From positions 1-38,336 of the forward strand of contig JAPLTV010000058.1 in assembly GCA_026397955.1 (NCBI GenBank): DNA of 38,336 nt, written 5' to 3'. The notes beneath the pieces were generated by a model. That model was given only the letters and a program-made list of their open reading frames with translations. It was not told the origin of the DNA and did not search any database. The position numbers were made by a program, and so were the translations under genes. Position 1 is the stretch's first letter; each line of letters begins with the position of its first letter. Below, in pieces: positions 3,312 through 37,402 of this stretch. The DNA comes from Verrucomicrobiota bacterium. Lineage in GTDB: Bacteria > Verrucomicrobiota > Verrucomicrobiia > Opitutales > UBA953.

Positions 3312-3411
3312 GGGGTAGGGGTGGGGGCAGGGGTCGGGGTAGGAGAGAACAAAAGGCAGAGAGCCCCTTGTTTTGTTTAACTACCCCAACCCCGACCCCT
3401 ATCCCTCCCCC
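3312..3411. repeat. Inverted GGGGNN hexamer arrays between pyrB and trpA
   Basis: The left arm (3312-3343) is five GGGG-plus-two-base units (TA, TG, CA, TC, TA in the variable positions). The right arm (3381-3411) is the inverted C-rich counterpart, with units reading as GGGGTA, GGGGTT and GGGGTC on the other strand. Between them, AACAAAA at 3348-3354 pairs with TTTTGTT at 3371-3377. The right arm ends 5 bases before the trpA stop codon. Each G-rich arm has four or more runs of G and could form a G-quadruplex; alternatively the two arms could pair with each other. Confidence 0.85.
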
Positions 3412-3416
3412 GTGAA

Positions 3417-4208
3417 TTATTTAGCGAGAAGTTCCCGCACCTTCGCACCGATGGCGGCGGCGGCCTGGGACTTGTTGTCCTTATGGGCGGCGACGACGTT
3501 CACGAGCGCGCTGCCGACGACCACGCCGTCGGCGACCTTGGCGATGGCCTGGACGTGCGCGGCGGTAGAGACACCGAAGCCGACGCAGATGGGCAGGGAA
3601 GTGTGCTTACGGATCTCGGCGACCGCGGAGGAAAGATTGGCGGCCAGTTCGGAGCGCTCGCCGGTCACACCTTCGCGCGAGACGTAGTAGATGAAGCCCG
3701 AGGCGTGTTTGGCGATGAGGCCGATGCGCGCGGGCGGCGTGGTCGGAGCCACGATGAAGATGTTGGCGAGGCCGTGCTTCTTCGAGGCCGCGATTAGTTC
3801 CTCGGCTTCTTCGGGCGGGCAGTCGAGGACGAGCAGGCCGTCGGCGCCGGCTTCGCGGACCTTAGCGCAGTAGCTGTCGAGGCCGAACGAGAATAGCAGG
3901 TTATAATAGCAATAGAGCACGATTGGCTTGTCCGTGCCGGCGCGCACGGCGCGAAGCACGTCGAGCAGGCCGTCGTAGGTCATGCCGCCTTCGAGGGCGC
4001 GCTGGGAGGCGAGCTGGTTCGTCAGGCCGTCGGCGAGCGGGTCGGAGAAAGGCACGCCCACTTCGAGGACGTCGGCGCCGTTCTGAGCCAGGGAAAGGAG
4101 GATGGCCTTGGACGTCTCGACGTCGGGGTCGCCGGCGCAGACGTAGCTAACGAAGGCCGGGCGGCCTTCGGCTTTACAGCGGGCGAACGTCTGGGCTAAG
4201 CGATCCAT
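3417..4208 (-). CDS. trpA: Tryptophan synthase alpha chain
   Basis: The product cleaves indole-3-glycerol phosphate to indole and glyceraldehyde 3-phosphate and channels indole to TrpB. The 263-residue TIM-barrel protein shows FVSYVCAGDPD near the N-terminus, the catalytic pair E49 and D60 in EVGVPFSDPLADG, CYYNLLFSFG, a DCPPEE stretch corresponding to the family's DLPPEE, FIYYVSREGVTG, and the phosphate-binding GFGVST and VVGSALV. The reading frame stays open upstream through the tRNA-Leu on the other strand, but homology begins at the ATG at 4208, so that start is used. No trpB or other trp gene is next to it, so trpA sits apart from the classical trp operon here. Confidence 0.95.
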   Translation of the reverse strand: MDRLAQTFARCKAEGRPAFVSYVCAGDPDVETSKAILLSLAQNGADVLEVGVPFSDPLADGLTNQLASQRALEGGMTYDGLLDVLRAVRAGTDKPIVLYCYYNLLFSFGLDSYCAKVREAGADGLLVLDCPPEEAEELIAASKKHGLANIFIVAPTTPPARIGLIAKHASGFIYYVSREGVTGERSELAANLSSAVAEIRKHTSLPICVGFGVSTAAHVQAIAKVADGVVVGSALVNVVAAHKDNKSQAAAAIGAKVRELLAK

Positions 4209-4312
4209 AGGCGGAAGGAAGCCGGGTTTGGTCCGGAGGGCAAGGCGAAGGCGAATCAGCCCCGCTTTCCCGGGTTGCCAATCCGAGGCGCGTCCGCACT
4301 TTGGGGACGTCG

Positions 4313-4393
4313 GCCCAAGTGGTGGAACGGTATACACATCAGACTTAAAATCTGCCGCCGAAAGGCTTACCGGTTCGAGTCCGGTCTTGGGCA
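4313..4393 (+). tRNA. tRNA-Leu (anticodon UAA)
   Basis: The acceptor stem is GCCCAAG with CTTGGGC, followed by discriminator A. The anticodon loop is CTTAAAA, closed by CAGA/TCTG, giving anticodon TAA (UAA). A variable arm of the class II type lies between the anticodon stem and the T arm (CCGG-TTCGAGT-CCGG). No CCA is encoded at the 3' end. A terminator hairpin follows 11 bases later. Confidence 0.95.
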
Positions 4394-4404
4394 CGGCAAT
4401 ACGA

Positions 4405-4440
4405 AACAGGCCGCACGAGTGGTGCGGCCTGTTTTCCCGT
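4405..4440 (+). terminator. Terminator of tRNA-Leu
   Basis: A perfect 12-bp stem (AACAGGCCGCAC at 4405-4416 with its complement at 4422-4433) with a 5-base loop ends in GTTTT, followed by a looser T-containing tail. Confidence 0.85.
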
Positions 4441-4695
4441 TTCCGGGACAAATAAGTCCAGAGTCCTAGCTACGGGACTCTGGGGTCGGGTACGGAGAGT
4501 TTGAATTCTGATTCCGTTAGTCGCCCTCGCGACTGATGCGTCCTTTATAAGGGAGGCTCTTACCTGAGTGAAATTGACTGAGCGTTTTGTGCTCATCCCT
4601 CGAGGTGTTGTCAACGGATTCGTCGAAAAACCCCGAAAATAGGATTAAAAGTCGATTGGAGGCCATTAAAGCCCTCTGAAACGGGGTGTCGCCGG
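4441..4695. other. Intergenic spacer without a gene; small hairpins only
   Basis: Between the tRNA-Leu terminator and the end of the transporter gene I see no credible coding frame. It holds a 9-bp inverted repeat CCAGAGTCC...GGACTCTGG (4458-4466 with 4475-4483), a 6-bp one AGTCGC-cctc-GCGACT (4519-4534), and a lower GC content than the genes. On the minus strand the first hairpin is followed by a T-rich stretch and could terminate transcripts coming from the transporter gene. A small RNA cannot be excluded. Confidence 0.4.
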
Positions 4696-5400
4696 TCAGC
4701 GCTTGAGGCTGAAGGGGGTGAAATCGGTGTCGGTATCGAACGCGTCGACGCCTTCGGCCTCCTTCAGCTTGGCGCAGACGACGGTCGTCACGGGCGTCAT
4801 GATCACCTCGACGAGCACCTTGAAGACCCAATTGGCGAACATCACGGCGAGGAGTGTCTGCGGACTCCAGATGCCGATGAAGGCGAGCGGGTAGAAGATC
4901 AGACTGTCGACGCCCTGGCCAACGACGGTCGAGCCGATGAAGCGGGCCCACGGATGCTTGCCGCCCATGCGCACCTTCATCTTCGCGAGCACGTAGGAGT
5001 TGAGGAAGTCGCCGACGCAGAACGCGATGATCGAGCCGAGGGCGATGCGCCAGCCGCCGCCGAAGCACGTCACGAGCGCGGGCTGCAGTTGGGCGCTGAA
5101 CGGTTCGTTAGGGCTGGCCGGCATTGCGAGCACGACCCAGGTCATCACTGTCGCAAAGAGCATCGCGCCAAAGCCGGCCCAGATGACACGACGCGCAAGG
5201 GCGTAGCCGTATACCTCGGTGAGGATGTCGCCGAAGATATACGACAGGGGAAAAAACAGGTTGCCCGCTCCGAAGTCGGTCTTGCCGAAGAAGGGTAGGT
5301 CGAGTTGCACGACCTTCGCTGGGCCGATGAGGTTCGAGCAGAGTAATACCGCGACGAACGCGCCGAGGATGAGGTCGTAGTAGCGGAAGCTGCGGGTCAT
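4696..5400 (-). CDS. Queuosine precursor transporter (YhhQ/QPTR family)
   Basis: This 234-residue integral membrane protein has about six hydrophobic segments and the family hallmarks FPLSYIFGDILTEVYGY (about residues 51-67), GQGVDSLIFYPLAF and NWVFKVLVEVIMTPV. The family (vitamin-uptake-transporter-like, E. coli YhhQ) imports queuine precursors such as preQ0 and preQ1, used to make queuosine in the tRNA wobble position. No queuosine biosynthesis gene is nearby. I looked for a preQ1 riboswitch in the 53-base gap before the start and found none convincing. The following gap holds only a 6-bp hairpin TTCGCC...GGCGAA (5430-5450). Confidence 0.9.
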   Translation of the reverse strand: MTRSFRYYDLILGAFVAVLLCSNLIGPAKVVQLDLPFFGKTDFGAGNLFFPLSYIFGDILTEVYGYALARRVIWAGFGAMLFATVMTWVVLAMPASPNEPFSAQLQPALVTCFGGGWRIALGSIIAFCVGDFLNSYVLAKMKVRMGGKHPWARFIGSTVVGQGVDSLIFYPLAFIGIWSPQTLLAVMFANWVFKVLVEVIMTPVTTVVCAKLKEAEGVDAFDTDTDFTPFSLKR

Positions 5401-5453
5401 CGTCGCTTAGGGTGAAAGGATTGTTCCCGTTCGCCAGCGGGGCGGGCGAAAAA

Positions 5454-6608
5454 TCAGCGGCCGAGGGCGGCTTTGATGAAGGGCTCGAAGATATCGCCCT
5501 GGCGGTGGAAGCCGAGGTCGCTGGCGTGCGAGCCGTCCGTGGCGCCATCGGCGTCATCGCCGTACAGGTGGTCTCCGGGCACGTAGGACAGGCCTTTGAC
5601 GCCTTCCTTCACGAGCTGGTCGTAGGCGGCCTTGAGGGCGGCGTGGTTGTCGTCGTGGTGCTGTCGGAGGGAGGCCTTGAGCCAGGAGTCGGTGTTACGT
5701 CGGTCTTCAACGAGGATGATCGGGGTGCTGGGGCGGGCGGCGCGCAGCTGCTTGACGAGCGGCCCGCATTTCTCGGTGACGTCCTTCGGTCCCATGTTCG
5801 GAAGGCAGTCGATCACGTAGGCGGCGGCGTCGATGCGCGTGAGGAATTCGCCGACGGCTTGGTCCATGCGGCCGTTGCCGGAGAAGCCGAGGTTCACGAC
5901 CGGCACATCGAAGTGGCGGCCCAGGATGGCCGTATGCACCATGCCCGGACGGCTGGCGCAGGCGCCATGCGTGATCGAGGTGCCGTAGAAGACGACCGGC
6001 TTCGCGCGCGGTTTGAGGCCGACGAACTTTTTGCCTTCGGTTACGCCGACGTTGAGGAATTCCACGCCGTTATAGAGCGGGAGGTAGATTGCGTATTCGC
6101 GTTCGCCCGGGTCGAGGCCTTCAGCGATACGGACCTTCATCTCTTGCGTGGTAGGGCGGACGACCTGCACCCAGCGCCATTTGCCGTCTTGGTCGCGGGC
6201 GTAGAGGTCGAGGCCGCTGACGCCGGTGGCCGGCATGTGCGGCTGTTCAAGCTTCGCCTTCGTCAGCTTGTAGTGGGCGTAGATTGTCGTGGCGTCGGTG
6301 CGGAAGCGGAACATCTGGCCGGCGCTATCGCGGCTCAGGCCCCAGACGGCGGGCGTGACCTTGCCGTCGGCTTCGGCGGGCAGGCGGTCGAAGTAGCTCT
6401 TACGCTCCGCGTCGGGAAAGGCGCGGCCTTCGAGGTCGGTCTCACGGACGTCATGCCAGGAGATCTTTTCGTCGGGTCGCACGGCGTAGCGGTCGACGGC
6501 TTTAGGCGCGGCCTTCGCGGCCGGGGCTTGGGCGGCGGGCTTGGCCTGCTGGGCGAAGCCGCTGGAGCCGGTGCAGAGTAGGGCGAGGAGGAGGGCGGCG
6601 GTCTTCAT
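5454..6608 (-). CDS. Secreted SGNH/GDSL esterase with GxDLY domain
   Basis: The protein has 384 residues. It starts with a signal peptide (about residues 1-19, ending F-A-Q) and an Ala/Pro-rich linker, then an N-terminal beta domain with the GLDLYARD motif (132-139) of the GxDLY family, then an SGNH hydrolase domain. The catalytic serine is S211 in YGTSITHG; GFSGNG (241-246) supplies oxyanion-hole residues; D358 and H361 in TDGSHASD complete the triad. Such two-domain esterases act on acylated carbohydrates or similar esters outside the cytoplasm; the substrate here is unknown. The gene starts 12 bases after the stop of the coiled-coil protein gene, so the two are likely co-transcribed. Confidence 0.88.
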   Translation of the reverse strand: MKTAALLLALLCTGSSGFAQQAKPAAQAPAAKAAPKAVDRYAVRPDEKISWHDVRETDLEGRAFPDAERKSYFDRLPAEADGKVTPAVWGLSRDSAGQMFRFRTDATTIYAHYKLTKAKLEQPHMPATGVSGLDLYARDQDGKWRWVQVVRPTTQEMKVRIAEGLDPGEREYAIYLPLYNGVEFLNVGVTEGKKFVGLKPRAKPVVFYGTSITHGACASRPGMVHTAILGRHFDVPVVNLGFSGNGRMDQAVGEFLTRIDAAAYVIDCLPNMGPKDVTEKCGPLVKQLRAARPSTPIILVEDRRNTDSWLKASLRQHHDDNHAALKAAYDQLVKEGVKGLSYVPGDHLYGDDADGATDGSHASDLGFHRQGDIFEPFIKAALGR

Positions 6609-6620
6609 GGTCTTAGAAAA

Positions 6621-7247
6621 TCAGAGGGCGCTGCCGTGCGTGAGCGCGATCGTGCGGATCGCAGCCAGCGGCTTTTCGTATTCGTCGAGGGCGGCGACGT
6701 AGTCTTCGCGGGCCTTGTCGGCGCGTTGGAAGGCCGACTCCGTGGAGGACTTGGTCTTGTCGAGGTTCGACTGGGCTTTCGCTTCCATGTCTTCGGCGGA
6801 GGCGAGCGACGCGGAGGTGTTGCGGATCTGTTCCTGCAGGAACTGCAGTTCACGGACGTCGATGTTCGGCTGGGAGCGGAGCAGGGCGAGCTGGGAGCGC
6901 AGCGCTTCGAGGCTGCGGCGGAGTCGCGTCACGCGGTCCGACTCGCGGGTAACGTTCTGCTGCGCGCGATGCACGAGTGCCTCGGCTTTGGCCTTATCCT
7001 CGAGCGAGCGCTTATACTCGTCGAAGCGCAGCTTAGTGCGCGGATAGTTGGCGGCGGACATCAGGCTGACCACACCTTCCTTCGTCACGTAAGGGAGCTG
7101 GTAGCGGCGGTTGTCGATACGCAGGATGTATTTCTCGCCCGGCTGGTCGTAGAGGATCGGCAATGTCTGGGGCGCGTCCGGGTCGGCGGCCCATGCGGTG
7201 GCCATCCCGAGCAGGATCAGGAAGAGCAGGGCGGGGAAGGCCTTCAT
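6621..7247 (-). CDS. Secreted coiled-coil protein of unknown function
   Basis: The 208-residue product has a clear signal peptide (about residues 1-20, cleavage after A-W-A-A likely). A short beta-rich segment (about 28-65, containing LRIDNRRYQLPYV) is followed by a long charged helical region (about 70-195) rich in E, K, R, Q and A with heptad-like leucine spacing, typical of a coiled coil. I recognise no named family. It sits between the TetR regulator and the SGNH esterase, on the same strand and 12 bases before the latter. It could be a periplasmic scaffold or cell-envelope protein; that is inference from composition only. Confidence 0.7.
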   Translation of the reverse strand: MKAFPALLFLILLGMATAWAADPDAPQTLPILYDQPGEKYILRIDNRRYQLPYVTKEGVVSLMSAANYPRTKLRFDEYKRSLEDKAKAEALVHRAQQNVTRESDRVTRLRRSLEALRSQLALLRSQPNIDVRELQFLQEQIRNTSASLASAEDMEAKAQSNLDKTKSSTESAFQRADKAREDYVAALDEYEKPLAAIRTIALTHGSAL

Positions 7248-7278
7248 GAGTCTTTATTATGGGCGGTGGCGAAGGCAG

Positions 7279-7905
7279 TCAAACCGCCTTCTGGCGGGCG
7301 GGTCGGCGGAGCCGGCGGCTATCGATATGCTGGGTGATGATCTTCAGGATATCTTCGCGGACCGCCTGGCCGCTTTCATCGGCCAGCCAGAGCTTGAGCA
7401 TGCCGGCGTAGAAGCAGAACGTCTCGCGGGCGGCGAGCCGCGGGTCGAGTGCGGGGGCGATTAATTTCTCCCGTGCCGCCTCCTCGTAGAGTTCGGTCGC
7501 CTCGGTCAGGAAGAGCGTGCCCGCCGACATCAGGTCTTTGCGCACGCCGGCGAATTCGCCGACGTATTCGCATTTCCAGAGCATGACCTCGTAGGTCTCG
7601 CGGGCTTGTTTGTCCTCGGCGAGACGTCGCAGCGCCTCGTGCAGGCCGCATTCGAGACGTCGGAGAGCGTCGCCCGACTTAAAATCAGCGAAGCGCAGCA
7701 GGATGCCCGTCTCTTGGCGGACGGCCATGAAGAGGTCGGCCTTATTCCGGAAGTGCCAGTAGACCGCCCCGCGGGTCACGCCGGCTTCCTTCGCCACGTG
7801 ATCCAGCGAGGTATTCGTGACCCCTTCGCGACTAAAGACCTGCCGGGCACATTCGACGATTCGGTGACGAGTCAGGGCGGCCTCTGCTTTGGTCTTGCGA
7901 GCCAT
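7279..7905 (-). CDS. TetR/AcrR-family repressor of the divergent efflux operon
   Basis: This is a 208-residue regulator with the TetR N-terminal helix-turn-helix: residues 13-60 include RHRIVECARQVFSREG, TSLDHVAKEAGVTRGAVYWHF and RNKADLF. The C-terminal half is the all-helical ligand-binding domain of the AcrR/TtgR type. The gene is divergent from a complete RND efflux operon and separated from it by only 24 bases, which contain most of a 28-bp palindrome. By analogy with AcrR and TtgR, it probably represses the pump genes, and perhaps itself, until a pump substrate binds. No Shine-Dalgarno sequence is visible before its ATG. Confidence 0.92.
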   Translation of the reverse strand: MARKTKAEAALTRHRIVECARQVFSREGVTNTSLDHVAKEAGVTRGAVYWHFRNKADLFMAVRQETGILLRFADFKSGDALRRLECGLHEALRRLAEDKQARETYEVMLWKCEYVGEFAGVRKDLMSAGTLFLTEATELYEEAAREKLIAPALDPRLAARETFCFYAGMLKLWLADESGQAVREDILKIITQHIDSRRLRRPARQKAV

Positions 7906-7922
7906 GGTGGGTCAAATAGATT
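7895..7922 (+). promoter_or_regulatory. Putative sigma-70-like promoter of the efflux operon
   Basis: TTGCGA at 7895-7900 and TAGATT at 7917-7922 are 16 bases apart and resemble -35 and -10 boxes. Transcription would start about 7 bases further on, at or next to the ATG at 7930, implying a leaderless message. The -10 box overlaps the left edge of the operator. Assigned by eye. Confidence 0.4.
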
Positions 7923-9060: not shown

Positions 9061-9069
9061 AGCACCCCG

Positions 9070-19784: not shown

Positions 19785-20000
19785 AAGGGGGAGGGCCAGG
19801 GCTAGGGATAGGCCTAGAATGAAGTAAAATGCCCCTAAATTGGGGTTGGGATAGGGGTAGGGGTGGGTGTAGGGCTGAGCGCCCTTGGTCAGCCGCTCGG
19901 TTGAGCGAGGGCGCTCAACCTCACCAGGTATCTGGGTGGCTGGATCGACTGGCCCCAGCCCTAGTCCTGGTCCTAGCCCTAATTACCCTTTTCCTCGAAC
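19785..20000. repeat. Degenerate inverted period-6 arrays in the accA / DUF1080 spacer
   Basis: This 303-base divergent spacer (19733-20035) contains no gene. From 19785 to 19817 it carries GGGCTA-type hexamers, from 19840 to 19876 GGGGTT/GGGATA/GGGGTA units, and from 19952 to 20000 the inverted C-rich form (CCCTAG, TCCTGG, TCCTAG, CCCTAA). Inside lies a two-hairpin element (19869-19925). The arrays are more decayed than those elsewhere in the window. Promoters of both flanking genes must overlap or lie next to these repeats; I cannot assign them. Confidence 0.75.
19869..19925. repeat. Two-hairpin intergenic element, copy 1 (GTAGGG...CTCACC)
   Basis: The element begins GTAGGGCTGA and ends CTCAACCTCACC. 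It has two stems: GGCTGA with TCAGCC (19873-19878 with 19889-19894) and GGTTGAGC with GCTCAACC (19899-19906 with 19913-19920). It shares the first ten bases, CCCTTGGTCAGCCG and the whole second hairpin with the element at 37162-37243, so the two are copies of one family. Confidence 0.8.
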
Positions 20001-22886: not shown

Positions 22887-23106
22887 GCGGATAGCGGTAA
22901 GCGGTTAGCGGTTGGGGCTGCCATTCGCTCAAAGGGAAACCGGAGACAGGATGTTTGGTATGGGCCGCCGGAGGGCGGCCGAGGGTAGGGGCGTGGCTAC
23001 GCCGCGCCCTCCCCGGAGGAGTGCACGATGAATCGTGCCCCTACCTTGTTTCGCCCTGCGGCGAAAAATAGGGGGTCCTAACCGCTAACCGCCAACCGCT
23101 TACCGC
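22887..23106. repeat. Inverted GCGGTTA heptamer arrays downstream of kamA
   Basis: Four heptamers (GCGGATA, GCGGTAA, GCGGTTA, GCGGTTG) at 22887-22914 start directly after the kamA stop codon. The inverted set (TAACCGC twice, CAACCGC, TTACCGC) is at 23079-23106. The 164 bases between hold hairpins: GGCCGCC with GGCGGCC near 22965-22982, the GGTAGGGGC-bounded element at 22984-23045, and TTCGCC-ctgc-GGCGAA near 23050-23066. No gene is seen in the 274-base spacer before tRNA-Arg. Confidence 0.88.
22984..23045. repeat. Multi-hairpin intergenic element, copy 2 (GGTAGGGGC...GCCCCTACC)
   Basis: Perfect 9-bp outer arms enclose GCGT-ggct-ACGC and GCACGAT-ga-ATCGTGC (23023-23029 with 23032-23038). Its end sequences (GGTAGGG / CCCTACC) and two-hairpin layout match the elements near 19869, 33100 and 37162, although the inner stems differ in sequence. 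Confidence 0.75.
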
Positions 23107-23126
23107 TGGTTATCTTGTAAACACAA

Positions 23127-23151: not shown

Positions 23152-23160
23152 CGCTCAAAG

Positions 23161-23976: not shown

Positions 23977-24031
23977 GGGGTTACCCTCCGCACATTGCGG
24001 AGAAGGTCAAGAGGAGGGCGGCAAACAAAGA

Positions 24032-24143
24032 GGGGTAGGGGCAGGGGTCGGGGTAGGGGTAGGAAATAAAACTCTACCCTCAGGAGTTTTCTGAACACCT
24101 CGCCATCATGTCTTCAGCCTGATGCATCTCCTGCCCCTACCCC
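24032..24143. repeat. Inverted GGGGNN hexamer arrays between ubiE/menG and mnmA
   Basis: The left arm (24032-24063) is GGGGTA, GGGGCA, GGGGTC, GGGGTA, GGGGTA. The right arm (about 24130-24143) is the inverse of GGGGTAGGGGCAG and abuts the mnmA stop codon. Between them sits the mnmA terminator. Confidence 0.85.
24067..24090 (-). terminator. Terminator of mnmA
   Basis: On the minus strand, AAAACTC and GAGTTTT form a 7-bp stem around a 9-base loop and run into TTTTATTT. It lies between the two hexamer arms. Confidence 0.75.
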
Positions 24144-25220
24144 TTAGACGAACACTCCCCCGCCCATGAGGACGCGGTCGTGGTAGACGGCGAGGACTTG
24201 GCCGGGCGCGAGGCCGCGCTGGGTCTCGGCGAAGTGGAGGCGCACGCTGCCGTCAGGTTGCGGGGTGAAGCGGGCCGCTGTGGCCTTATCGCGATAACGC
24301 ACGCGGGCGAGGATGTCCTGTTCGCCGACCACAGGCTGATTGATCCAGGTGAAGTCGCGGGCGATGGCTTCGCCGGTATAGAGCCAAGGCGCATCCGGCT
24401 TGTCGAAGGCGACGTGCAGGGTGTTGGTCGCGAAATCTTTCTTCACGACGACGAAGTATTCGTTATCGGTGTTGGAGGGCAGGCCGATGCCCTTGCGCTG
24501 ACCGATGGTGTAGCGATGCAGGCCGCGGTGCTTGCCAATCTCCTTGCCGGCGGCGTTGACCACCGGGCCGGGTGAATCCGGGATGTGCCGCTCGAGGAAA
24601 TCCTGCACGGGAATCTGTCCGAGGAAGCAGATGCCTTGGCTGTCCTTGCGTTCGGCGTTCGGCAGTTTCGCATCGGCGGCGAGCTTACGGACTTCCGGCT
24701 TCAGCAGTTCGCCAATCGGGAAGATTGCCTTCGCGAGCTGTTCTTGGCGCAGCAGCGCGAGGAAGTAGGACTGGTCTTTGTTCGGGTCGAGGCCTTCGAG
24801 CAGGTCGAACGTCCCGTCAGCGTTTTCTCGTCGGCGCGCGTAGTGGCCCGTCGCGATGACATCATAACCGTCCTTGATCGCCTTGCGCAGGAAGACACCG
24901 AACTTCATCTCGCGGTTGCAGATGATGTCGGGGTTCGGGGTCAGGCCCTGGCGGTAGCCGTCGACGAGGTATTGAACGACCGTGTCGCGGTAGTCCTGGA
25001 CGAGGTCGATGATCCGGAAGGGCAGGCCGAGGTGGTCGGCGACGGCCTGGGCGTTACGGACGTCGTCCTCCCAAGGGCATTCGCCGGGGAAGGGTAGGCC
25101 CTCCTCGTTCATCCAGGTCCGGAAGTAGGCGGCATGCACCTCATGCCCTTGCTGCTTGAGCAGAAGGGCCGCCACGGCGCTATCAACGCCGCCGGAGAGG
25201 GCTACCAGGACCTTGGACAT
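24144..25220 (-). CDS. mnmA: tRNA-specific 2-thiouridylase
   Basis: The product installs sulfur at position 2 of the wobble uridine in tRNAs for Lys, Glu and Gln. The 358-residue protein shows the PP-loop SGGVDS (9-14), the catalytic cysteine C101 in NPDIICNREMKFG, the second cysteine C198 in DSQGICFLG, GHYAR and DQSYFL, and a C-terminal beta-barrel ending GQVLAVYHDRVLMGGG. Start is the ATG at 25220 directly before SKVLVALSGG. There is no Shine-Dalgarno sequence; the preceding bases are C-rich. It is divergent from the LysM gene across a spacer bracketed by hexamer arrays. Confidence 0.96.
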   Translation of the reverse strand: MSKVLVALSGGVDSAVAALLLKQQGHEVHAAYFRTWMNEEGLPFPGECPWEDDVRNAQAVADHLGLPFRIIDLVQDYRDTVVQYLVDGYRQGLTPNPDIICNREMKFGVFLRKAIKDGYDVIATGHYARRRENADGTFDLLEGLDPNKDQSYFLALLRQEQLAKAIFPIGELLKPEVRKLAADAKLPNAERKDSQGICFLGQIPVQDFLERHIPDSPGPVVNAAGKEIGKHRGLHRYTIGQRKGIGLPSNTDNEYFVVVKKDFATNTLHVAFDKPDAPWLYTGEAIARDFTWINQPVVGEQDILARVRYRDKATAARFTPQPDGSVRLHFAETQRGLAPGQVLAVYHDRVLMGGGVFV

Positions 25221-25269
25221 CGGAGGGCAAGGTAGGGCCGGGAAGGGCGGGGATACAGATTATTTAGAA

Positions 25270-25366
25270 GGGGTAGGGGTAGGGGCAGGGGTAGGGATGG
25301 TTAGGACAAACTTACTGAAGCCCTTGGTCGCCTGCATTTCCTGCCCCAACCCCTACCCCTATCCCT
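25270..25366. repeat. Inverted GGGGNN hexamer arrays in the mnmA / LysM-gene spacer
   Basis: The left arm (25270-25297) is GGGGTA, GGGGTA, GGGGCA, GGGGTA, GGGATG. The right arm (25341-25366) is the inverse of GGGATA, GGGGTA, GGGGTT, GGGGCAG. The 43-base centre contains GCCCTTGGTCG, sharing CCCTTGGTC with other spacers of this window. The divergent promoters should lie here. Confidence 0.85.
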
Positions 25367-25419
25367 TTGTGGTCTCATATCGCTTTGCTCTCCCGCCTTG
25401 GGCATGTTTTCCTCGTTCC

Positions 25420-26013
25420 ATGCGTCTCGGCATCCTCTTTCTTTTCCTCGGCCTCATTCCGCTGGCGGCCCAGAACGCCCAGATCGCCGGCATGCAGCAG
25501 GATCTCGCCGAGCTCCGTAACGAGGTCGAAAAGCTGAAGCTCGAGAACGCCGACCTGCGCACCGCGCTCAATCGCCAGAAAGCTGGACAGTCTCCGGCCG
25601 CTTCGCAGGGCGAAGCATTGTCCAAGGCCCGCGCCGAAACTTTGGTTGAAGTGGATCGCCGTCTCAAGCAGCAGACCGACGAAGTGAACGCGGCCCTCGC
25701 CGAGCTTACCCGCCAGGTGAACGCCGCCCTCGGCAAGTCCGGTCCTGCACCGGCCACGAAGGCAGGTAAGTCGGCCAAGCCTGCCGCCGCTCAGACCGAG
25801 ACTCCGGCCACGACCGAAGCGGGCGCGCCTTCCGACGTCCCCCAGACCGGCATCAAATATCACGTTAAATCCGGCGATACGGTCACGAAGATCGCCCTGC
25901 GTAACGGCTCCAAGGCCGAATGGATCCTGAAAGCGAATAACCTTTCCTCGCCTGCCGCCCTGAAAGCGGATGTCGATATCTTCGTCCCGCAGCCCGAAGC
26001 CGCCGGACGCTAA
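25420..26013 (+). CDS. Secreted coiled-coil LysM-domain protein
   Basis: From the ATG at 25420 the product has 197 residues: a signal peptide (M-R-L then hydrophobic to L-A-A-Q, about residue 18), a coiled-coil region (about 22-50, LAELRNEVEKLKLENADLR, and about 65-100), an Ala/Pro/Lys-rich linker, and one C-terminal LysM domain (about 145-190, YHVKSGDTVTKIALRNG...ILKANNL...VDIFVP). LysM binds N-acetylglucosamine polymers, so the protein is probably attached to peptidoglycan in the periplasm. The longer upstream frame runs into the opposing mnmA gene and is not used. parB starts 19 bases after its stop. Confidence 0.85.
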   Translation: MRLGILFLFLGLIPLAAQNAQIAGMQQDLAELRNEVEKLKLENADLRTALNRQKAGQSPAASQGEALSKARAETLVEVDRRLKQQTDEVNAALAELTRQVNAALGKSGPAPATKAGKSAKPAAAQTETPATTEAGAPSDVPQTGIKYHVKSGDTVTKIALRNGSKAEWILKANNLSSPAALKADVDIFVPQPEAAGR

Positions 26014-26935: not shown

Positions 26936-26951
26936 TAAGAACAAGGTGAGG

Positions 26952-27072
26952 GCGGTTGGCGGTTAGCGGTTGGCGGATAGGTAAATGCCAAGAAACAGAA
27001 AGCCCGGGTCAGGTGACTCCGGGCTTTGTTTTGGCTGTGCTCTGGTTTTCCCAACCGCTAACCGCCAACCGC
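26952..27072. repeat. Inverted GCGGTTG/GCGGTTA heptamer arrays between parB and purH
   Basis: The left arm is GCGGTTG, GCGGTTA, GCGGTTG, GCGGATA (26952-26979). The right arm (27052-27072) is CAACCGC, TAACCGC, CAACCGC, a perfect 21-bp inverse of the first three left units. A bidirectional terminator lies in the middle. Both genes converge on this spacer. Confidence 0.92.
26999..27031. terminator. Bidirectional terminator between parB and purH
   Basis: AAAGCCCGG (26999-27007) pairs with CCGGGCTTT (27019-27027) over an 11-base loop, followed by GTTTT on the plus strand, ending both convergent transcripts. Confidence 0.88.
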
Positions 27073-27097
27073 TATCACCTCGGCGGCCTCCGGCCGC

Positions 27098-28639: not shown

Positions 28640-28655
28640 GGTGAAAGAAAGGGAA

Positions 28656-28680
28656 GGGGTAGGGGGAGGGGGTGGGGTGG
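28656..28680. repeat. Single GGGGNN hexamer array just upstream of purH
   Basis: GGGGTA, GGGGGA, GGGGGT and GGGGTGG lie 17-41 bases before the purH ATG. There is no C-rich partner nearby. In the purH leader RNA it would read as a C-rich tract. Confidence 0.75.
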
Positions 28681-28704
28681 TCAAGGAAGCAGGAGGTGCT
28701 GACA

Positions 28705-28826
28705 GCGGTTAGCGGTTGGCGGTTAGCGGATAGGGTGGGGTATAGGGGAGGGCATTCTGAGCCCTGGTTTCTCTGGTTCTTCTGCTTTTTGCGTTTCCCA
28801 ACCGCTAACCGCTAACCGCCAACCGC
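28705..28826. repeat. Inverted heptamer arrays in the purH / fabD spacer
   Basis: The left arm is GCGGTTA, GCGGTTG, GCGGTTA, GCGGATA (28705-28732). The right arm is CAACCGC, TAACCGC, TAACCGC, CAACCGC (28799-28826). The 66-base centre is unremarkable (T-rich on the right half). Both genes diverge from this spacer, so promoters are expected here. Confidence 0.9.
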
Positions 28827-28884
28827 TTGGGCGTTCCGCCTCTCCATCATTGACCCTTCCGCCCTTTTTCCCTCCCTCCTACCA

Positions 28885-29867: not shown

Positions 29868-31665
<1,798 letters not shown>

Positions 31666-31667
<2 letters not shown>

Positions 31668-31686: not shown

Positions 31687-31724
31687 CTCGGTGGGCCGTA
31701 CGTTAGTTTGTCGGGGTCCTCCCC

Positions 31725-33068: not shown

Positions 33069-33072
33069 TTTA

Positions 33073-33284
33073 GGGGTAGGGGCAGGGGTTGGGGTTGGGG
33101 TAGGGACGTGATTGCCATCACGTCCGATTGCCATCACGTCCGTGGGCGGACGGACATCATAGGGTCTTTGACCTTACCCGGCTCATGCCACGTCGCTCTG
33201 CGAACGGCGGCCATGGCAATGGCCGCCCTACCTTAGGGAACCCATGCCTTGCCTATCCCTACCCCTATCCCTACCCCTACCCCT
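33073..33284. repeat. Inverted GGGGNN hexamer arrays in the lepB / GNAT-gene spacer
   Basis: The left arm (33073-33106) reads GGGGTA, GGGGCA, GGGGTT, GGGGTT, GGGGTA, GGGACG and begins 5 bases after the lepB stop. The right arm (33253-33284) is TATCCC, TACCCC, TATCCC, TACCCC, TACCCC and ends 11 bases before the next ATG. The 146-base centre is filled by a multi-hairpin element. Confidence 0.88.
33100..33232. repeat. Multi-hairpin intergenic element, copy 3, with tandem 16-mer
   Basis: It begins GGTAGGGACG and ends GCCGCCCTACC. Hairpins are GGACGTGAT with ATCACGTCC (33104-33112 with 33117-33125), CGTCCG-tggg-CGGACG (33137-33152) and GGCGGCCAT with ATGGCCGCC (33206-33214 with 33219-33227). ATTGCCATCACGTCCG occurs twice in tandem (33111-33126 and 33127-33142), indicating a local duplication of one hairpin half. 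Confidence 0.8.
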
Positions 33285-33295
33285 GCTTCGCAACG

Positions 33296-33967
33296 ATGTC
33301 CTGGACCCTCTATCGCCACTACAAAGGTAACCACTACCTCCGCCTCGGGGTCGCCGCCCATTCCGAGGACCTGTCGCCGCAGGTGGTCTACCGTTGTCTG
33401 TATGATAATCCCGAAGCACGCACGTGGGTCCGACCGCAACCGATGTTCGAAGGCGTGATCGAGGACGGCCGCCAGCGCTTCACTCCCTTGGGTCGTCTCC
33501 GTCTCGTGCAGCCGGAAGACATGCGGACCGTTCTGGCCTTCGGCTACGACGCGTGGAAGCACGATAAGACTTTCGATCAATACTGTGCCGACAAGCACAG
33601 CGACCCGAACCACCTGCGTGGCACGCGTTACCTGCTTGAGGACGCCGCGGGAAGGCCCGTGTCCGCACTGAATGTCCTGCGTTTCCGCGAAAGCCTCATC
33701 GGGTTCGCTTCCGTCGCGACCTCCCCGGAGTATCGTGGTAAGGGTTACGGTTCGCTACTGCTGCGCGCCGTCATGGAGCTGCATCGCTTCGCCCAGCCGG
33801 ACCTTCGATTCGTGCTCTTCTCCGAGATCAAACCGGCGATCTACGAGCGCCTCGGCTTCTTCGTCCTACCGCCCGAGCACCAGCACTTCCTGCCGACTCC
33901 GGCCATGGCCACCGGCGACACGCCCCTGTCCGCGACCGAAGGCGAATTCCTGAAGACCTATTTCTAG
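33296..33967 (+). CDS. DUF1653-GNAT acetyltransferase fusion
   Basis: From the ATG at 33296 the product has 223 residues. Residues 4-65 (LYRHYKGNHYLRLGVAAHSE, VVYRCLYDNPEARTWVRPQPMFEG, RFTPL) match DUF1653, a small domain normally found as a stand-alone protein. Residues about 68-223 form a GNAT N-acetyltransferase with the acetyl-CoA loop R147-G-K-G-Y-G152 (SPEYRGKGYGSLLLRAVMEL) and the following YERLGFFVLP strand typical of motif B. The substrate is unknown; the DUF1653 part may bind ligand or partner. The frame extends upstream through the C-rich hexamer array, but both homology and the ATG support 33296. The next gene converges on it 9 bases after the stop. Confidence 0.85.
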   Translation: MSWTLYRHYKGNHYLRLGVAAHSEDLSPQVVYRCLYDNPEARTWVRPQPMFEGVIEDGRQRFTPLGRLRLVQPEDMRTVLAFGYDAWKHDKTFDQYCADKHSDPNHLRGTRYLLEDAAGRPVSALNVLRFRESLIGFASVATSPEYRGKGYGSLLLRAVMELHRFAQPDLRFVLFSEIKPAIYERLGFFVLPPEHQHFLPTPAMATGDTPLSATEGEFLKTYF

Positions 33968-33976
33968 GCCTGGGGC

Positions 33977-34852
33977 TTACTTCTTCGCCGCGGTAGCCAA
34001 GGCGACCTTCGCTAGCCACTCGGCGACCTTGGGGTGTTCGGTTTCGGCGAACGCGTGACCGACGCCGGTCATCTCGCTACCGAGGACCGTCGCGCCCTTA
34101 GTTTTGAGGGCCTTGGGGAGCAGGCTGGTGGCGGCCTTATTCGAGCCTTTTTCTCCACCCCAGCAGGCGTAGGCAAACTTACCCTTGAGGTCGGGCAGGC
34201 TGCCTTTCGAGGTATAGGTGCTGCCGCCGCCATCAGCGAAGACGAAGATACCGAAGTAGTCGGTGAGCTTCGGGCCGCTGCTCAGGCGGAGCATGCCATC
34301 GATGGAGTGAGCTCCGTTGCTGAAGCCGGCGATGATTGAGTGCGCCTTGTCGATGTTGGGGATGACCTTCGCAATCTCATCCAGCATGAAGCGTTGGTAG
34401 GTCCAGATCTTGGCGAAATCTCCGACCATGTTCGCCTGGACAGGGTTATTCGCTCCCTTGGGGTAGGGAAGACCGACGAGGATGAAATCGCCCGCGGGCA
34501 GGAATGAGCCGCTCGGGTTGTTGCCGCCTTCTCCTCCGCCGAGCCAAGCCACCAGCGGGTATTTCTTCGCCGCGTCGTAATTCGCTGGGAGGGTGAGATT
34601 GCAGGCCGCCATCGCGCCGTGACGATCCACGGTCAGTTCTGGGAAATCGAAGCGCAGCGTGGCTCCCGGCGCGACCTTCGCCTTGAGTTCCGTCCGCGGG
34701 ATGGCCTTTTCAACTGGCGCCACGGCCTTCTCTTCGGTCTTCGCAGCCGTCTTCTCGTCGCCCTTAGCCGAGGTTTTCTTAGAGGCAGGCTTATCGGCCG
34801 CAATGAGTGCACCGCTGATCGCGAGCAGAAGAAACAGTCGGGCGAGGTTCAT
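33977..34852 (-). CDS. Secreted alpha/beta-hydrolase-fold protein
   Basis: The ATG at 34852 gives 291 residues with a signal peptide (M-N-L-A-R then a hydrophobic run, cleavage near A-A about residue 19), a Lys/Ala/Glu-rich low-complexity linker (20-55), and an alpha/beta-hydrolase domain. This resembles dienelactone-hydrolase or esterase/PHB-depolymerase-like proteins. The nucleophile elbow is G176-F-S178-N-G180, the candidate catalytic histidine is H266 in GVGHAF, and GGGEGG near 105-110 may form the oxyanion hole. The substrate is unknown. An upstream in-frame ATG would add 18 residues before the signal peptide and is not used. The gene is convergent with the GNAT gene. Confidence 0.8.
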   Translation of the reverse strand: MNLARLFLLLAISGALIAADKPASKKTSAKGDEKTAAKTEEKAVAPVEKAIPRTELKAKVAPGATLRFDFPELTVDRHGAMAACNLTLPANYDAAKKYPLVAWLGGGEGGNNPSGSFLPAGDFILVGLPYPKGANNPVQANMVGDFAKIWTYQRFMLDEIAKVIPNIDKAHSIIAGFSNGAHSIDGMLRLSSGPKLTDYFGIFVFADGGGSTYTSKGSLPDLKGKFAYACWGGEKGSNKAATSLLPKALKTKGATVLGSEMTGVGHAFAETEHPKVAEWLAKVALATAAKK

Positions 34853-34952
34853 CAAGATCGGCGGGGATTTTATGGACAGTATTCTCCGGCATCCATGGTC
34901 TGGCAACGTAGATGCAGGCCCATGGCTTTCCTCTTGTTTTCCGCATCTTAAG

Positions 34953-35006
34953 TATGGGGTCAGACCGCTTCTGACTGATATCGCTCAGAAGCGGCCTGAC
35001 CCCATA
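34953..35006. repeat. Near-perfect 22-bp inverted repeat between hydrolase gene and menD
   Basis: TATGGGGTCAGACCGCTTCT plus GA (34953-34974) and its inverse (34985-35006) match at 21 of 22 positions around a 10-base loop; the single difference still allows a G-U pair in one strand's RNA. It ends 16 bases after the menD stop and could serve as its terminator, though no T tract follows. TATGGGGTCAG ends resemble termini seen with REP/MITE-like elements, so a small non-autonomous element is an alternative. Confidence 0.85.
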
Positions 35007-35022
35007 CAAATTCTCGGCTGAA

Positions 35023-36729
35023 TTAGCGGAAGGACTTCTGGCGCCAGGCAGCGTCGGCTTCCCGGTCGGTGCGGAATTCGATGACGCGGACGCCCTTGCC
35101 ACGGATCTCGAGGAGGCGACGTAGGTCGTTCCAGTCGTCGGCGAGATCATGGCGTACCTTGTGGGCGGCACAGAGCTTGCCGAGGTCGGCCGCCTGCGGC
35201 GTACCCCAGAGCTGTTCAAAGCGCGCGCTCTTCGCCACGGCGAGGTGGTTGAAGATGCCGCCGCCCTGGTTGTTGATCACGAGTACGGTGAGGTCGCCAC
35301 GGTGACCGTAGGCGGAGAGCAGCGCGTTGCTGTCGTGGAGGAAAGTCAGGTCACCGCAGAGGAGCACGGTTCGCTTGCCGTCGAGCGACGCGCCCAGCGC
35401 GGTCGAGACGGTGCCATCGATGCCGTTGGCGCCGCGGTTGGTCAGGATCTCAGGGCCAGGGCCAGGCGGGTGGTAGAACCATTCGATGTCGCGGATCGGC
35501 ATGCTGCTGCCAACGAAGAGGCGGTCGTCTGGGCCGAGGGCTTCGTCGAGCAGCGACACGACGCGGCCTTCGAAAGGCCAATCGACGTTCACGATGCGCA
35601 TGAGTTTCTTGGCCGCGGCTTTCTGGGCGGTCTGCCAAGCTTTGCCGTAAGCGGAGGCTTTCGACGAAACCTTATCGCCCGAAGGCACGAGCTGTCCGTC
35701 GAGTCGGCTCCAGCGCGAATGCGTCGGGTCGGTGTTCTCGCCGGCGCGGCCAATCTGGATCGCGTTAATGTCGCCGTCTTTGATCCAAGCGCGCAGGACT
35801 TTGCTGGTTGGGAGCGGGCCGACGAAGATCGCGGCTTGCGAGCGCAGGGTGCGAGCGGCTTTGGCGTCGCGCAGGATGAGGTCGTAGCCCGAGATCAGTG
35901 AAGCATCGCCGGCGAGGTCGCCGCGCAGCGTGCCCGCGCCATCGGCGAGGATTGGCCAGCCAGTCAGATGGGAAAGCTCGCGCAAGGCTGAGGCGCTTTC
36001 GTCGCGATCTTCAAAGGCATGCGGCCCGACCACGATGACGCCGCGATCGGTCTTCGCGAGCAGGCTGGCGACCGTGGCGGGCGTGAGAGTCGGGCGGACG
36101 ATGCCGCACGGAGGCACGGACGTGAAGGTCTCGAGGTTGAGGCCGGCGGGCGCCTTGAAGCCCTTTTCGGCATCCGAAGGGGCGAGAGGGTCGCGGAAGG
36201 GGAGATTGAGGTGCACCGGGCCAGCCAGAGGGCCTTGGGAGCGCTGCCAGGCGTCGACCAGCAGCTGGCGCCAGTGGCGGAGGAGGGAGAGGTCGTTGCC
36301 GGGCACGGCCGCCTCGGTAGCCCAGACCGGGTATGAGCCGTAGATTCCGTTCTGGGTGATTGTCTGGCCGGAGTGGCATTCGCGCAGTTCGGGCGGACGA
36401 TCGGCGGTCAGGATGAGCAGGGGCGTGGCTGCGAGACGTGCCTCGACGATGGCGGGCAGGTAGTTCGCGGCGGCGGTGCCGGAGGTGCAGAGCAGGGCGG
36501 CGGGGCGACCCGTGGCCTTGGCGAGGCCGAGGGCAATGAAGCCGGCCGAACGTTCGTCGAGCGCGACCGTCACATGGAGGCCGGCGCTTTCGGCGAAGGC
36601 ATGGGCCAGTGGCGTCGAGCGCGAGCCGGGCGAGATCACCACGTGGGTCAGGCCGAGGCGGCGGAGCGTGCGCACGCCGACGTCAGCCCAGAGGGCGTTC
36701 GTGTTCAGGTGCTTCGTCGCGCGAGCCAT
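35023..36729 (-). CDS. menD: Menaquinone biosynthesis SEPHCHC synthase
   Basis: This ThDP-dependent enzyme joins 2-oxoglutarate and isochorismate, the first committed step of the classical menaquinone pathway. The 568-residue protein shows VVISPGSRSTPLAHAF (31-46), the ThDP-activating glutamate E59 in LDERSAGFIALGLAK, CTSGTAAANYLPA, LTADRPPELRECHSGQTI, SSMPIRDIEWF, NRGANGIDGTVSTALG, and the ThDP/Mg site GDLTFLHDSNAL...NNQGGGIF. I use the ATG at 36729; a TTG four codons upstream is possible but less likely. ubiE/menG, the last gene of the same pathway, lies 11 kb away, so the men genes are scattered. No Shine-Dalgarno sequence is visible. Confidence 0.95.
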   Translation of the reverse strand: MARATKHLNTNALWADVGVRTLRRLGLTHVVISPGSRSTPLAHAFAESAGLHVTVALDERSAGFIALGLAKATGRPAALLCTSGTAAANYLPAIVEARLAATPLLILTADRPPELRECHSGQTITQNGIYGSYPVWATEAAVPGNDLSLLRHWRQLLVDAWQRSQGPLAGPVHLNLPFRDPLAPSDAEKGFKAPAGLNLETFTSVPPCGIVRPTLTPATVASLLAKTDRGVIVVGPHAFEDRDESASALRELSHLTGWPILADGAGTLRGDLAGDASLISGYDLILRDAKAARTLRSQAAIFVGPLPTSKVLRAWIKDGDINAIQIGRAGENTDPTHSRWSRLDGQLVPSGDKVSSKASAYGKAWQTAQKAAAKKLMRIVNVDWPFEGRVVSLLDEALGPDDRLFVGSSMPIRDIEWFYHPPGPGPEILTNRGANGIDGTVSTALGASLDGKRTVLLCGDLTFLHDSNALLSAYGHRGDLTVLVINNQGGGIFNHLAVAKSARFEQLWGTPQAADLGKLCAAHKVRHDLADDWNDLRRLLEIRGKGVRVIEFRTDREADAAWRQKSFR

Positions 36730-36821
36730 AGGCACAGGCAATCCGTCAAGGGCGGGACTGTCCAGCGTGGGCTTGGTTTTGGGTTTAAGCCCGGCTTATT
36801 AACCCTATCTTATCCCTTCAA

Positions 36822-37160
36822 ATGGAGGTCTTCCTGTATCTGCTGCCCCTGGTCGGGTCCTTGGTCTTTCCGGTCGTCCTGATCCACGCGATCTTCTGGG
36901 GCATGACCTTCACCGTCGACGAAGCCTACATGCGGGTGCGTATCTACGGCTTCACCGTGCGCAAGGTCGCCGTGAGCGATATCGAATACGCCGCGCAGGA
37001 TTGGGTCTTCTGGAACGAGCATTGGACTAATTCCATAAGTCCCAAGCGATTGGTACTGTTACGTCGTCGGACGGGCATGGTCAGGAATTTTCTCATTAGT
37101 CCACCTTCGCCGCAGGAGTTTTTGAAAGAGCTGGCGGCTAAGGGTGTGACGTTGCGCTGA
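36822..37160 (+). CDS. Small membrane protein, PH-domain-like, unknown function
   Basis: The 112-residue product starts with one hydrophobic segment (residues 4-28) followed by a short beta-rich soluble domain (TFTVDEAYMRVRIYGFTVRKVAVSDI, then LVLLRRR, quoted in part) and a C-terminal helix (SPQEFLKELAAKG). This strand-rich pattern with a final ISPPSPQEFL-helix is what one sees in small bacterial PH (bPH2-like) membrane proteins, but I cannot name a family with certainty. Codon use fits a real gene. It is divergent from menD with about 90 bases between the starts, which should contain both promoters. Confidence 0.65.
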   Translation: MEVFLYLLPLVGSLVFPVVLIHAIFWGMTFTVDEAYMRVRIYGFTVRKVAVSDIEYAAQDWVFWNEHWTNSISPKRLVLLRRRTGMVRNFLISPPSPQEFLKELAAKGVTLR

Positions 37161-37161
37161 A

Positions 37162-37243
37162 CCTTAGGTAGGGCTGACCACCCTTGGTCAGCCGTGGTTG
37201 AGTCAGGCCGCGGTTGAGCGAGGGCGCTCAACTCTACCCAAGG
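37162..37243. repeat. Two-hairpin intergenic element, copy 4
   Basis: The outer ends CCTTAGGTAGGG and CTCTACCCAAGG are imperfect inverses. Internal stems are GGCTGACC with GGTCAGCC (37172-37179 with 37186-37193) and GTTGAGC with GCTCAAC (37213-37219 with 37226-37232). The second hairpin and CCCTTGGTCAGCCG are identical to copy 1 at 19869-19925. Together with the next two repeats it fills the 310-base spacer 37161-37470, which holds no gene. Confidence 0.82.
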
Positions 37244-37252
37244 TAAAGAGAC

Positions 37253-37330
37253 TTTTCGGGTCCCGGGTCCCGATCCCGAACCTGCTCACCCGTACCCGGC
37301 TCTCGATTACCGAGACCCGAGACCTGAAAA
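37253..37330. repeat. Inverted GGTCCCG/GGTCTCG heptamer pair
   Basis: The left arm (37253-37272, TTTTCGGGTCCCGGGTCCCG) and the inverse of the right arm (37311-37330) agree at 17 of 20 positions; the right arm reads GGTCTCG where the left has GGTCCCG. A period of 7 is clear in both, and further CGATCC and GTAATCG units follow inward. This is a third sequence family with the same inverted-array design. Confidence 0.75.
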
Positions 37331-37381
37331 CGTGTACCCCAGCCAATCAACCGGTCTCCGGTTCCCCTTTGCTGTTTGTCC

Positions 37382-37402
37382 TTACCGCTTACCGCCAACC
37401 GT
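37382..37402. repeat. Unpaired right-hand heptamer array (TTACCGC / CAACCGT)
   Basis: TTACCGC, TTACCGC and CAACCGT match the C-rich arm of the GCGGTTA family found near 23079, 27052 and 28799. No left arm is present in this spacer, suggesting a remnant. Confidence 0.7.

What the first reader, a model, noticed from the sequence alone, without database searches (positions are those of the whole stretch)
3312..37402. Nested, bracketed intergenic spacers: inverted short-tandem-repeat arms around hairpin elements
At least seven spacers (3312-3411, 19785-20000, 22887-23106, 24032-24143, 25270-25366, 26952-27072, 28705-28826) plus 33073-33284 and 37253-37330 share one design. A G-rich tandem array of 6- or 7-base units comes first, a centre follows, then the inverted C-rich array. 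Unit sequence differs between families (GGGGNN, GCGGTTR, GGTCYCG) but the design and the G-first order are constant whatever the gene orientation. Arms hug gene ends: the array starts directly after the kamA stop, abuts the mnmA stop, begins 5 bases after the lepB stop and ends 5 bases from the trpA stop. Three brackets enclose a second element type with GGTAGGG/CCCTACC-like ends and hairpins. Conserved architecture with variable sequence suggests a process that builds or maintains these brackets, such as a mobile element, a repeat-copying enzyme, or RNA/DNA structure used in transcription or chromosome organisation. I know of no described system like this.
Basis: partly seen in the sequence, partly recalled or inferred. 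Interest (0 to 1): 0.78.

Follow-up and report, generated by a model that had tools for sequence, protein, structure and literature searches.

The report
Nested inverted short-repeat brackets between genes
The gaps between many genes of this bacterium are filled with mirrored arrays of 6-8-letter repeats, a kind already known from Xanthomonas and cyanobacteria, but here in several interchangeable and nested versions whose origin and job are unknown.

Summary
Eight of the nine listed spacers carry a G-rich 6- or 7-base array followed by its inverted C-rich counterpart; the ninth (37253-37330) is weak. Arrays are far above chance and concentrated between genes. All 64 bracket rows (63 distinct places) from one Verrucomicrobiota genus are G-first. 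Across 33 species the parB-purH slot holds different unit families, or none; where both arms could be assigned, they agree in 20 of 24. The inner hairpins (GGTAGGG...CCCTACC) look like GTAG-type REPINs: the same kind flanks a Y1 transposase gene in this genome.

It is not an undescribed system. A 2015 paper on Xanthomonas and Anabaena reports G-rich heptamer arrays, convergent inverted pairs (few in Anabaena), closeness to gene ends and the same strand rule; cyanobacterial STRR hairpins are related. New here: at least eight unit families of period 6-8 in one genome, block-wise exchange at fixed slots, and nesting with REPINs. No reverse transcriptase (this genome) and no excess of target-site duplications were found, and arms are not in-register copies overall. 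Most likely these are slippage-made arrays spread by copying and recombination of spacer DNA. Function is undemonstrated.

The parts
3312..3411 (.). hexamer (GGGNYA) bracket between the trpA stop and the start of the aspartate carbamoyltransferase gene
   Evidence: fold z -6.8
19785..19988 (.). degenerate hexamer bracket in the divergent spacer by accA, with GTAG-type hairpins inside (about 19862-19930; ends degenerate, no exact GGTAGGG)
   Evidence: arms 80% complementary
22887..23107 (.). GCGGTTR heptamer bracket starting directly at the kamA-family stop; encloses an ACCGG layer and REPIN-like hairpins (GGTAGGGGC...GCCCCTACC)
24031..24144 (.). hexamer bracket abutting the mnmA stop
   Evidence: fold z -5.1; octamer brackets in G011, G002, G034 (L041) and G004 at the same slot
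25269..25367 (.). hexamer bracket in the divergent spacer between mnmA and the next gene (25420-26013, no NCBIfam match)
   Evidence: fold z -5.1; centre inverted in G011 and G027
26944..27080 (.). GCGGTTR bracket around a terminator-like hairpin in the convergent parB-purH spacer
   Evidence: fold z -9.95
28647..28677 (+). G-rich stretch by the purH start, present in many congeners; no inverted array partner within 500 bases
28704..28827 (.). GCGGTTR bracket in the divergent purH-fabD spacer
   Evidence: fold z -6.9
33072..33284 (.). hexamer bracket downstream of the signal peptidase I gene; encloses REPIN-like GGTAGGGACGTGATTGCCATCACGTCC...GGCCGCCCTACC
37167..37240 (.). REPIN-like element GGTAGGGCTGACC...GCTCAACTCTACC
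37253..37330 (.). weak GGTCYCG-like heptamer arms
   Evidence: regular-expression match only; not found by the repeat search
34953..35007 (.). GGGGTCAGACC...GGCCTGACCCC palindrome, another dispersed family

Best explanation
The brackets are the Verrucomicrobiota version of the G-rich heptamer repeats and repeat hairpins known from Xanthomonas and cyanobacteria: intergenic arrays of a 6-8 base unit, oriented so that the strand running from the nearer gene into the spacer is the G-rich one, and often present as a facing (inverted) pair. Proposed working: (1) arrays grow and shrink by slippage (shown: unit number differs between close species; slippage itself inferred). (2) Spacer blocks carrying arrays are copied to other spacers of the genome and exchanged between species by recombination through flanking genes or shared repeats, so whole spacer alleles are replaced (outcome shown; route inferred). 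(3) Gene ends tolerate mainly arrays in the G-inward orientation, leaving G-first palindromes (orientation shown; selection inferred). (4) GTAG-type REP/REPIN elements linked to a Y1 transposase, and other palindromes, land inside, giving concentric nests (nesting shown; order of insertion inferred). In RNA each bracket could form a long stem that might end or protect transcripts (folding computed; function not shown).
For: Enrichment in spacers. Inverted partners within 500 bases: 22 of 58 intergenic arrays in this genome's sample, 10 of 18 in G016, 7 of 16 in G034, 5 of 21 in G019; direct partners 9, 1, 0, 2; reversed-not-complemented control 1, 0, 0, 1. G-first 64 of 64 rows; 62 unpaired arrays: G-rich left/right 33:7, C-rich left/right 6:16, Fisher p 2.7e-5. 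Arrays lie nearer the gene 5' of the G strand in 86 of 103, medians 52 and 193 bases, as reported for Xanthomonas (PMC4692102). Unit number: at purH-fabD G070 has 4 left/2 right units and G002 2 left/4 right, genes 98% identical. Copying within the genome: 19 spacer-spacer matches of at least 90% over at least 50 bases, one of 108 bases at 95% spanning octamer arrays (by eye several of the 19 are REPIN or GGGGTCAG copies). Exchange between species: G010 and G035 spacers 91.5% identical with genes 83.5%, while G010 and its clade-mate G029 have genes 94% and spacer 69%. Nested pairs 16 (crossing 6) against means 2.1 (3.9) when order is shuffled within spacers, maximum nested 9 of 500 shuffles.
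Against: Family agreement of the two arms is not explained by slippage alone; it needs block replacement or pairing selection. Some pair covariation exists: double-change pairs 6, 5 and 6 against shuffled means 2.3, 1.75 and 1.9 in three alignments of 9, 7 and 5 sequences, no excess in two octamer alignments of 8 (structures were derived from the same alignments, and RNAalifold's own covariation term was not favourable, 0.23, for the first). In the parB-purH slot the arms flank a terminator resembling the one that bracket-free basal species have, which simple block insertion does not explain. No transcript data.
Confidence: 0.5

Rival explanations
1. Foldback-like miniature mobile elements: each bracket family is a non-autonomous element whose terminal inverted repeats are tandem arrays, moved by an unidentified transposase, inserting in spacers and inside earlier copies.
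For: Same unit at dozens of places (30 matches of one pattern; 59 of an overlapping pattern, 0 in the reversed control); arms agree in family; nesting; GCGGTTR count varies from 0 to 67 within the genus; one weak whole-bracket match between the window's 3312 and 25269 brackets, 74.5% over 102 bases, and a 99-base match at 79% of a GCGGTTR arm plus its inner layer between two other spacers.
Against: No excess of direct repeats outside the arms; apart from the matches named, no centre shared between same-family brackets was noticed (60 best pairs read); at parB-purH the centre is apparently the old terminator; no clean filled/empty pair among 15 spacers inspected; Y1 transposase presence does not obviously track array count: G012 and G030 have 39 and 28 hits but no PF01797 hit; those genomes are incomplete and I made no formal test.
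Confidence: 0.2
2. Selected RNA or DNA structure: G-first facing arms of any unit are kept because the stem or G-quadruplex acts as a two-way transcription barrier or 3'-end protector.
For: Strong stems (z -5.1 to -9.95 in five window spacers); arrays in 13 of 51 convergent, 44 of 341 tandem and 9 of 116 divergent spacers; covariation in three of five alignments.
Against: Also present between divergent genes (25269, 28704 in the window); orthologous parB-purH slots without any bracket in G005, G018, G071 and G074; arms differ in unit number; no covariation excess in two octamer alignments.
Confidence: 0.25
3. Template-switch palindrome formation: one array is copied inverted onto the other side of a hairpin during replication.
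For: Some perfect arms (27 of 27 bases in L121 9268 and in L164 55); unit change GTTAG to GTGAG (G016) or GTCAG (G011) in both arms at parB-purH; an 18-bp inverted repeat that includes about the last 12 coding bases of purH in octamer species.
Against: Own partner is no better than another bracket's arm: shared rare units in 4 of 27 heptamer brackets against 3.0 permuted; common runs 26 against 24.1 in 23 hexamer brackets. An earlier score test gave 3 of 5000 permutations for 23 hexamer but 1875 of 5000 for 28 heptamer brackets; its pairs had been selected on pairing score.
Confidence: 0.1
4. Reverse-transcriptase copying of repeats.
For: None found.
Against: PF00078 in 1 of 55 genomes of the genus (G014), not in this one, which is 94% complete.
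Confidence: 0.01

Closest known systems
G-rich heptamer repeats GGGAATC (Xanthomonas) and GGGGA(C/T)T (Anabaena), PMC4692102
   Same: G-rich 7-mers, mostly intergenic, convergent inverted pairs (70 in Xcc, 75 in Xac), nearer the ORF 5' of the repeat, some overlapping stop codons, under-represented between divergent genes, same gene context in a relative with length and sequence variation; function unknown.
   Different: One unit type per genome is described there; here at least eight units of period 6, 7 and 8, exchanged at one slot and nested with each other and with REPINs. Inverted pairs were few in Anabaena. There repeat regions had fewer insertions and deletions than controls; here array spacers change length more: 13 of 86 comparisons within 3 bases, against 24 of 29 for spacers with neither arrays nor REPIN/GGGGTCAG motifs and 4 of 14 with such motifs only.
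Cyanobacterial STRR sequences and the tRNA-Leu(UAA) intron heptanucleotide hairpin (PMC2670836, PMC3488679; passages)
   Same: Usually 7-base repeats that can form a hairpin; copy number varies; extra sequence that does not follow the motif can be inserted (intron case).
   Different: Units and hosts differ; nesting of many families is not described in the passages seen.
REP / REPIN with RAYT (PMC3116915, PMC3733652; passages)
   Same: Inner GGTAGGG-hairpin pairs: GTAG-tagged palindromes in facing pairs, beside a Y1 transposase gene; O. terrae (Verrucomicrobia) is reported highly enriched in GTAG repeats.
   Different: The tandem arrays themselves are not REPs: no fixed palindrome body.
Small dispersed repeats within heptamer arrays in Nostoc (Elhai 2008)
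   Same: Recalled: small mobile repeats embedded in heptamer arrays, nested insertions.
   Different: Paper not held; the comparison is from memory, only its reference entry was seen.

Membership tests
G-rich heptamer repeat type (PMC4692102) | tandem G-rich units enriched in intergenic DNA | tested here: met
G-rich heptamer repeat type (PMC4692102) | convergent inverted pairs | tested here: met
G-rich heptamer repeat type (PMC4692102) | closer to the ORF 5' of the G strand | tested here: met
   86 of 103
G-rich heptamer repeat type (PMC4692102) | period of seven | tested here: inconclusive
   34 of 64 bracket rows period 7; 23 period 6; 7 period 8
G-rich heptamer repeat type (PMC4692102) | forms G-quadruplex | not testable with these tools
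   needs spectroscopy
STRR hairpin | repeats can pair into a hairpin | tested here: met
   z -5.1 to -9.95, five spacers
RAYT-REPIN (inner elements) | GTAG tag plus palindrome in facing pairs | tested here: met
   (degenerate at 19862)
RAYT-REPIN (inner elements) | Y1 transposase gene flanked by the element | tested here: met
   G000:C72, PF01797 30.2 bits, elements of the same kind on both sides; hairpin bodies differ from those in the window
RAYT-REPIN (inner elements) | mobilised by that transposase | not testable with these tools
   needs experiment
RAYT-REPIN (arrays) | fixed palindromic body | tested here: not met
MITE / DDE foldback element (arrays) | target-site duplication | tested here: not met
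   direct repeats of 5 or more in 1 of 64 against 0.77 permuted
MITE / DDE foldback element (arrays) | precise empty sites in relatives | tested here: inconclusive
   no clean pair among 15 spacers inspected; the nearest relative compared has genes 95% identical

The most novel reading that the evidence does not exclude
Spacers act as fixed slots in which complete hairpin cassettes of unrelated unit families are exchanged while one architecture (G-first facing arms touching gene ends) is kept, meaning that the architecture rather than the sequence is what is maintained: a modular, sequence-blind insulator or transcript-end system spread over a chromosome.
Probability: 0.25. Interest if true: 0.75.

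Novelty: new variant of a known kind. Interest (0 to 1): 0.52.

Why it matters
Heptamer repeat arrays in bacteria have long been noted with neither origin nor function known. This genus gives a natural experiment: some 33 species with the same genes in the same order and different repeat families, paired or unpaired, in the same slot. That makes it possible to ask whether architecture or sequence is kept, and how arrays spread. It also puts tandem-array brackets and RAYT-linked REPINs into one nested spacer ecology.

Tried and rejected
Rejected: chance or composition; plain intrinsic terminators as the whole story (brackets also occur between divergent genes); reverse-transcriptase copying; insertion with target duplication; general in-register arm copying (against the score-selected hexamer result). 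The GCGGTTR unit as a phylum-wide repeat: 7 of 387 genomes match, 2 of them in this genus; of the other 5, three match the reversed control about as often (simple repeats), leaving G296 (11 hits, the ten listed within one 81-base stretch) and G252 (1 hit). Inverted arrays do occur elsewhere with other units, where the G-first rule fails (5 of 9 arms).

Led nowhere: literature searches on Verrucomicrobia heptamers and on bacterial foldback elements (0 papers); plasmid records I expected to be Nostoc (not held); attempts at clean empty sites. Caveats: genes were called by my own codon-score script, trained on window genes; family labels come from regular expressions, and for from reading sequences by eye; the Markov controls are single resamplings; related species make permutation counts not probabilities. 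Dropped rows: L041 (same contig as G034 by length and identical spacers), identical spacers, and species lacking a family label on either arm (9 of 33 and 9 of 31; G016 fell out at parB-purH because its tblastn end was cut short). Fewest changes on the tree: 15 at parB-purH over 33 species, 10 at purH-fabD over 31, not compared with shuffled labels. In G019, 26 arrays lie in predicted genes and 19 outside.
Full report
WHAT IS THERE. The window is contig 53 of a 2.45 Mb, 126-contig genome assembly. Flanking genes were checked by NCBIfam: trpA, aspartate carbamoyltransferase, accA, kamA family, ubiE/menG, mnmA, parB, purH, fabD, lepA, signal peptidase I, menD. Eight of nine listed spacers hold the described arms; the ninth is weak.

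CHANCE. Arrays of period 5-9 were scored by a simple self-match scan. In 413,462 bases of this genome 45 lie outside predicted genes and 20 inside; Markov resampling gives 4 for the whole sample and 1 for the spacers. A congener with a low GCGGTTR count (G019, 400,000 bases) still has 19 outside genes (26 inside) against 1 in resampled spacers and 6 in the whole resampling. The pattern GCGGTTRGCGGTTRGCGG has 59 hits in this genome and none reversed; 30 of the 57 genomes searched match, this one included; these are 30 of 37 in the genus and 0 of 20 outside it.

ARCHITECTURE. Inverted partners outnumber direct ones (22 against 9 of 58 here). All 64 bracket rows are G-first (63 distinct places); centre median 90.5 bases, range 28-441. 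Unpaired arrays lean to the same side rule with exceptions (33:7 and 6:16), and 86 of 103 arrays sit nearer the gene 5' of their G strand. Spacers with two or more family tokens read like nested parentheses: the first token is G-strand in 80 of 92 and the last is C-strand in 82 of 92; 16 nested and 6 crossing pairs, against 2.1 and 3.9 when order is shuffled. RNA stems are much stronger than shuffles in five spacers.

SECOND ELEMENT TYPE. In this genome a Y1 transposase gene (G000:C72, 30.2 bits to PF01797) has GGTAGGGATGACCGG...GCCCCTACC elements on both sides. GGTAGGG occurs 55 times on one strand and 83 on the other in the sample, followed by recurrent hairpin bodies, although some are array units. 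Three window brackets enclose such elements, two with exact tags (22887, 33072) and one degenerate (19785). They fit GTAG-tagged REP/REPINs (PMC3733652 and PMC3116915, passages seen).

EVOLUTION AT FIXED SLOTS. At parB-purH 33 species carry GCGGTTR, octamer, GAGTAN, GGGGATR, mixed, REPIN-nested or no brackets. Sister species differ: the window has GCGGTTR and its sister G027 (genes 94.7% identical) has octamers. Arms agree in family in 20 of 24 and 18 of 22 species with both arms assigned, of 33 and 31 labelled; by eye three of the eight disagreements are GAGTAN nested inside GGGGATR, and the third slot is uninformative (8 of 8, all hexamer). Very similar spacer alleles occur in distant species (G010/G035), so alleles seem to move between lineages. 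The centre of the window's mnmA bracket is inverted in G011 and G027 and not in G002, G034 and G035. Lengths: 13 of 86 array-spacer comparisons stay within 3 bases of the window genome's length, 4 of 14 with only REPIN or GGGGTCAG motifs, 24 of 29 with neither. Basal species have only a terminator-like hairpin in the parB-purH slot; GCGGTTR brackets have a similar one in their centre.

TESTS OF MECHANISM. Arms are not in-register copies overall, although a few are perfect, a score test on selected pairs favoured hexamers, and three of five small alignments show excess double changes. No excess of direct repeats outside the arms. No reverse transcriptase match in 54 of 55 genomes. Recent intragenomic copies exist: 19 matches of at least 90% over at least 50 bases, several of them REPINs or palindromes by eye.

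COMPARISON. PMC4692102 (sections 13, 14 and 16 read, passages of 3, 7, 10 and 11) already describes the core design in Xanthomonas and, with few inverted pairs, Anabaena. PMC2670836 and PMC3488679 (passages) describe STRR and intron heptamer hairpins; PMC4679880 (passages) describes TAACTGA heptamers as direct repeats in Beggiatoaceae, Cyanobacteria and Bacteroidetes. In 1.24 Mb of loci from other genomes, most of them Verrucomicrobiota, 9 of 42 intergenic arrays have an inverted partner, 5 of them G-first (gene calls there use this genome's codon model). I did not find the multi-family, block-exchanged, nested form in the listings of searches, which cover open-licence papers only.

VERDICT. 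Real, orderly and puzzling, but a new variant of a known kind. The best-supported account is slippage arrays spread and exchanged as spacer blocks, with REPINs nested inside; selection on the stem is possible and unproven.

Noticed in passing
L182 1310-2062 (G000:C72; PF01797 match at L182 1501-1767): Y1 transposase (RAYT-like) gene directly flanked by GGTAGGG hairpin elements of the kind seen in the window.
   Followed up: partly
L177, L178, L179, L180, L181, L183: Other Y1 transposases in congeners (open frames of 175-325 codons) lie beside or near GGGGTCAG...CTGACCCC palindromes like that at window 34953-35007: possibly a second transposase/palindrome pair.
   Followed up: no
parB-purH slot, octamer species: An 18-bp inverted repeat beside purH includes about the last 12 coding bases of the gene, making a hairpin partly from coding sequence.
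   Followed up: no
L048 from 3323, L105 from 3201, L086 about 3759, L091 about 6128: GTAGTGR-type arrays in four other Opitutae/Opitutia MAGs; L048, L105 and L086 have similar flanks, L091 differs; inverted partners scored in L048 and L105.
   Followed up: partly
L056 9902-9991: Bracket GAACATC...GATGTTC just before mnmA in a MAG titled Akkermansia muciniphila: inverted arms without the G-first rule.
   Followed up: no
L137 19273-19432 against L188 (G016): Two different REPINs occupy one site with identical tags and near-identical flanks in two species, like a cassette exchange.
   Followed up: no
L124 mnmA spacer (G011): A run of N inside the bracket: an assembly gap, so repeat lengths in draft genomes are uncertain.
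   Followed up: no
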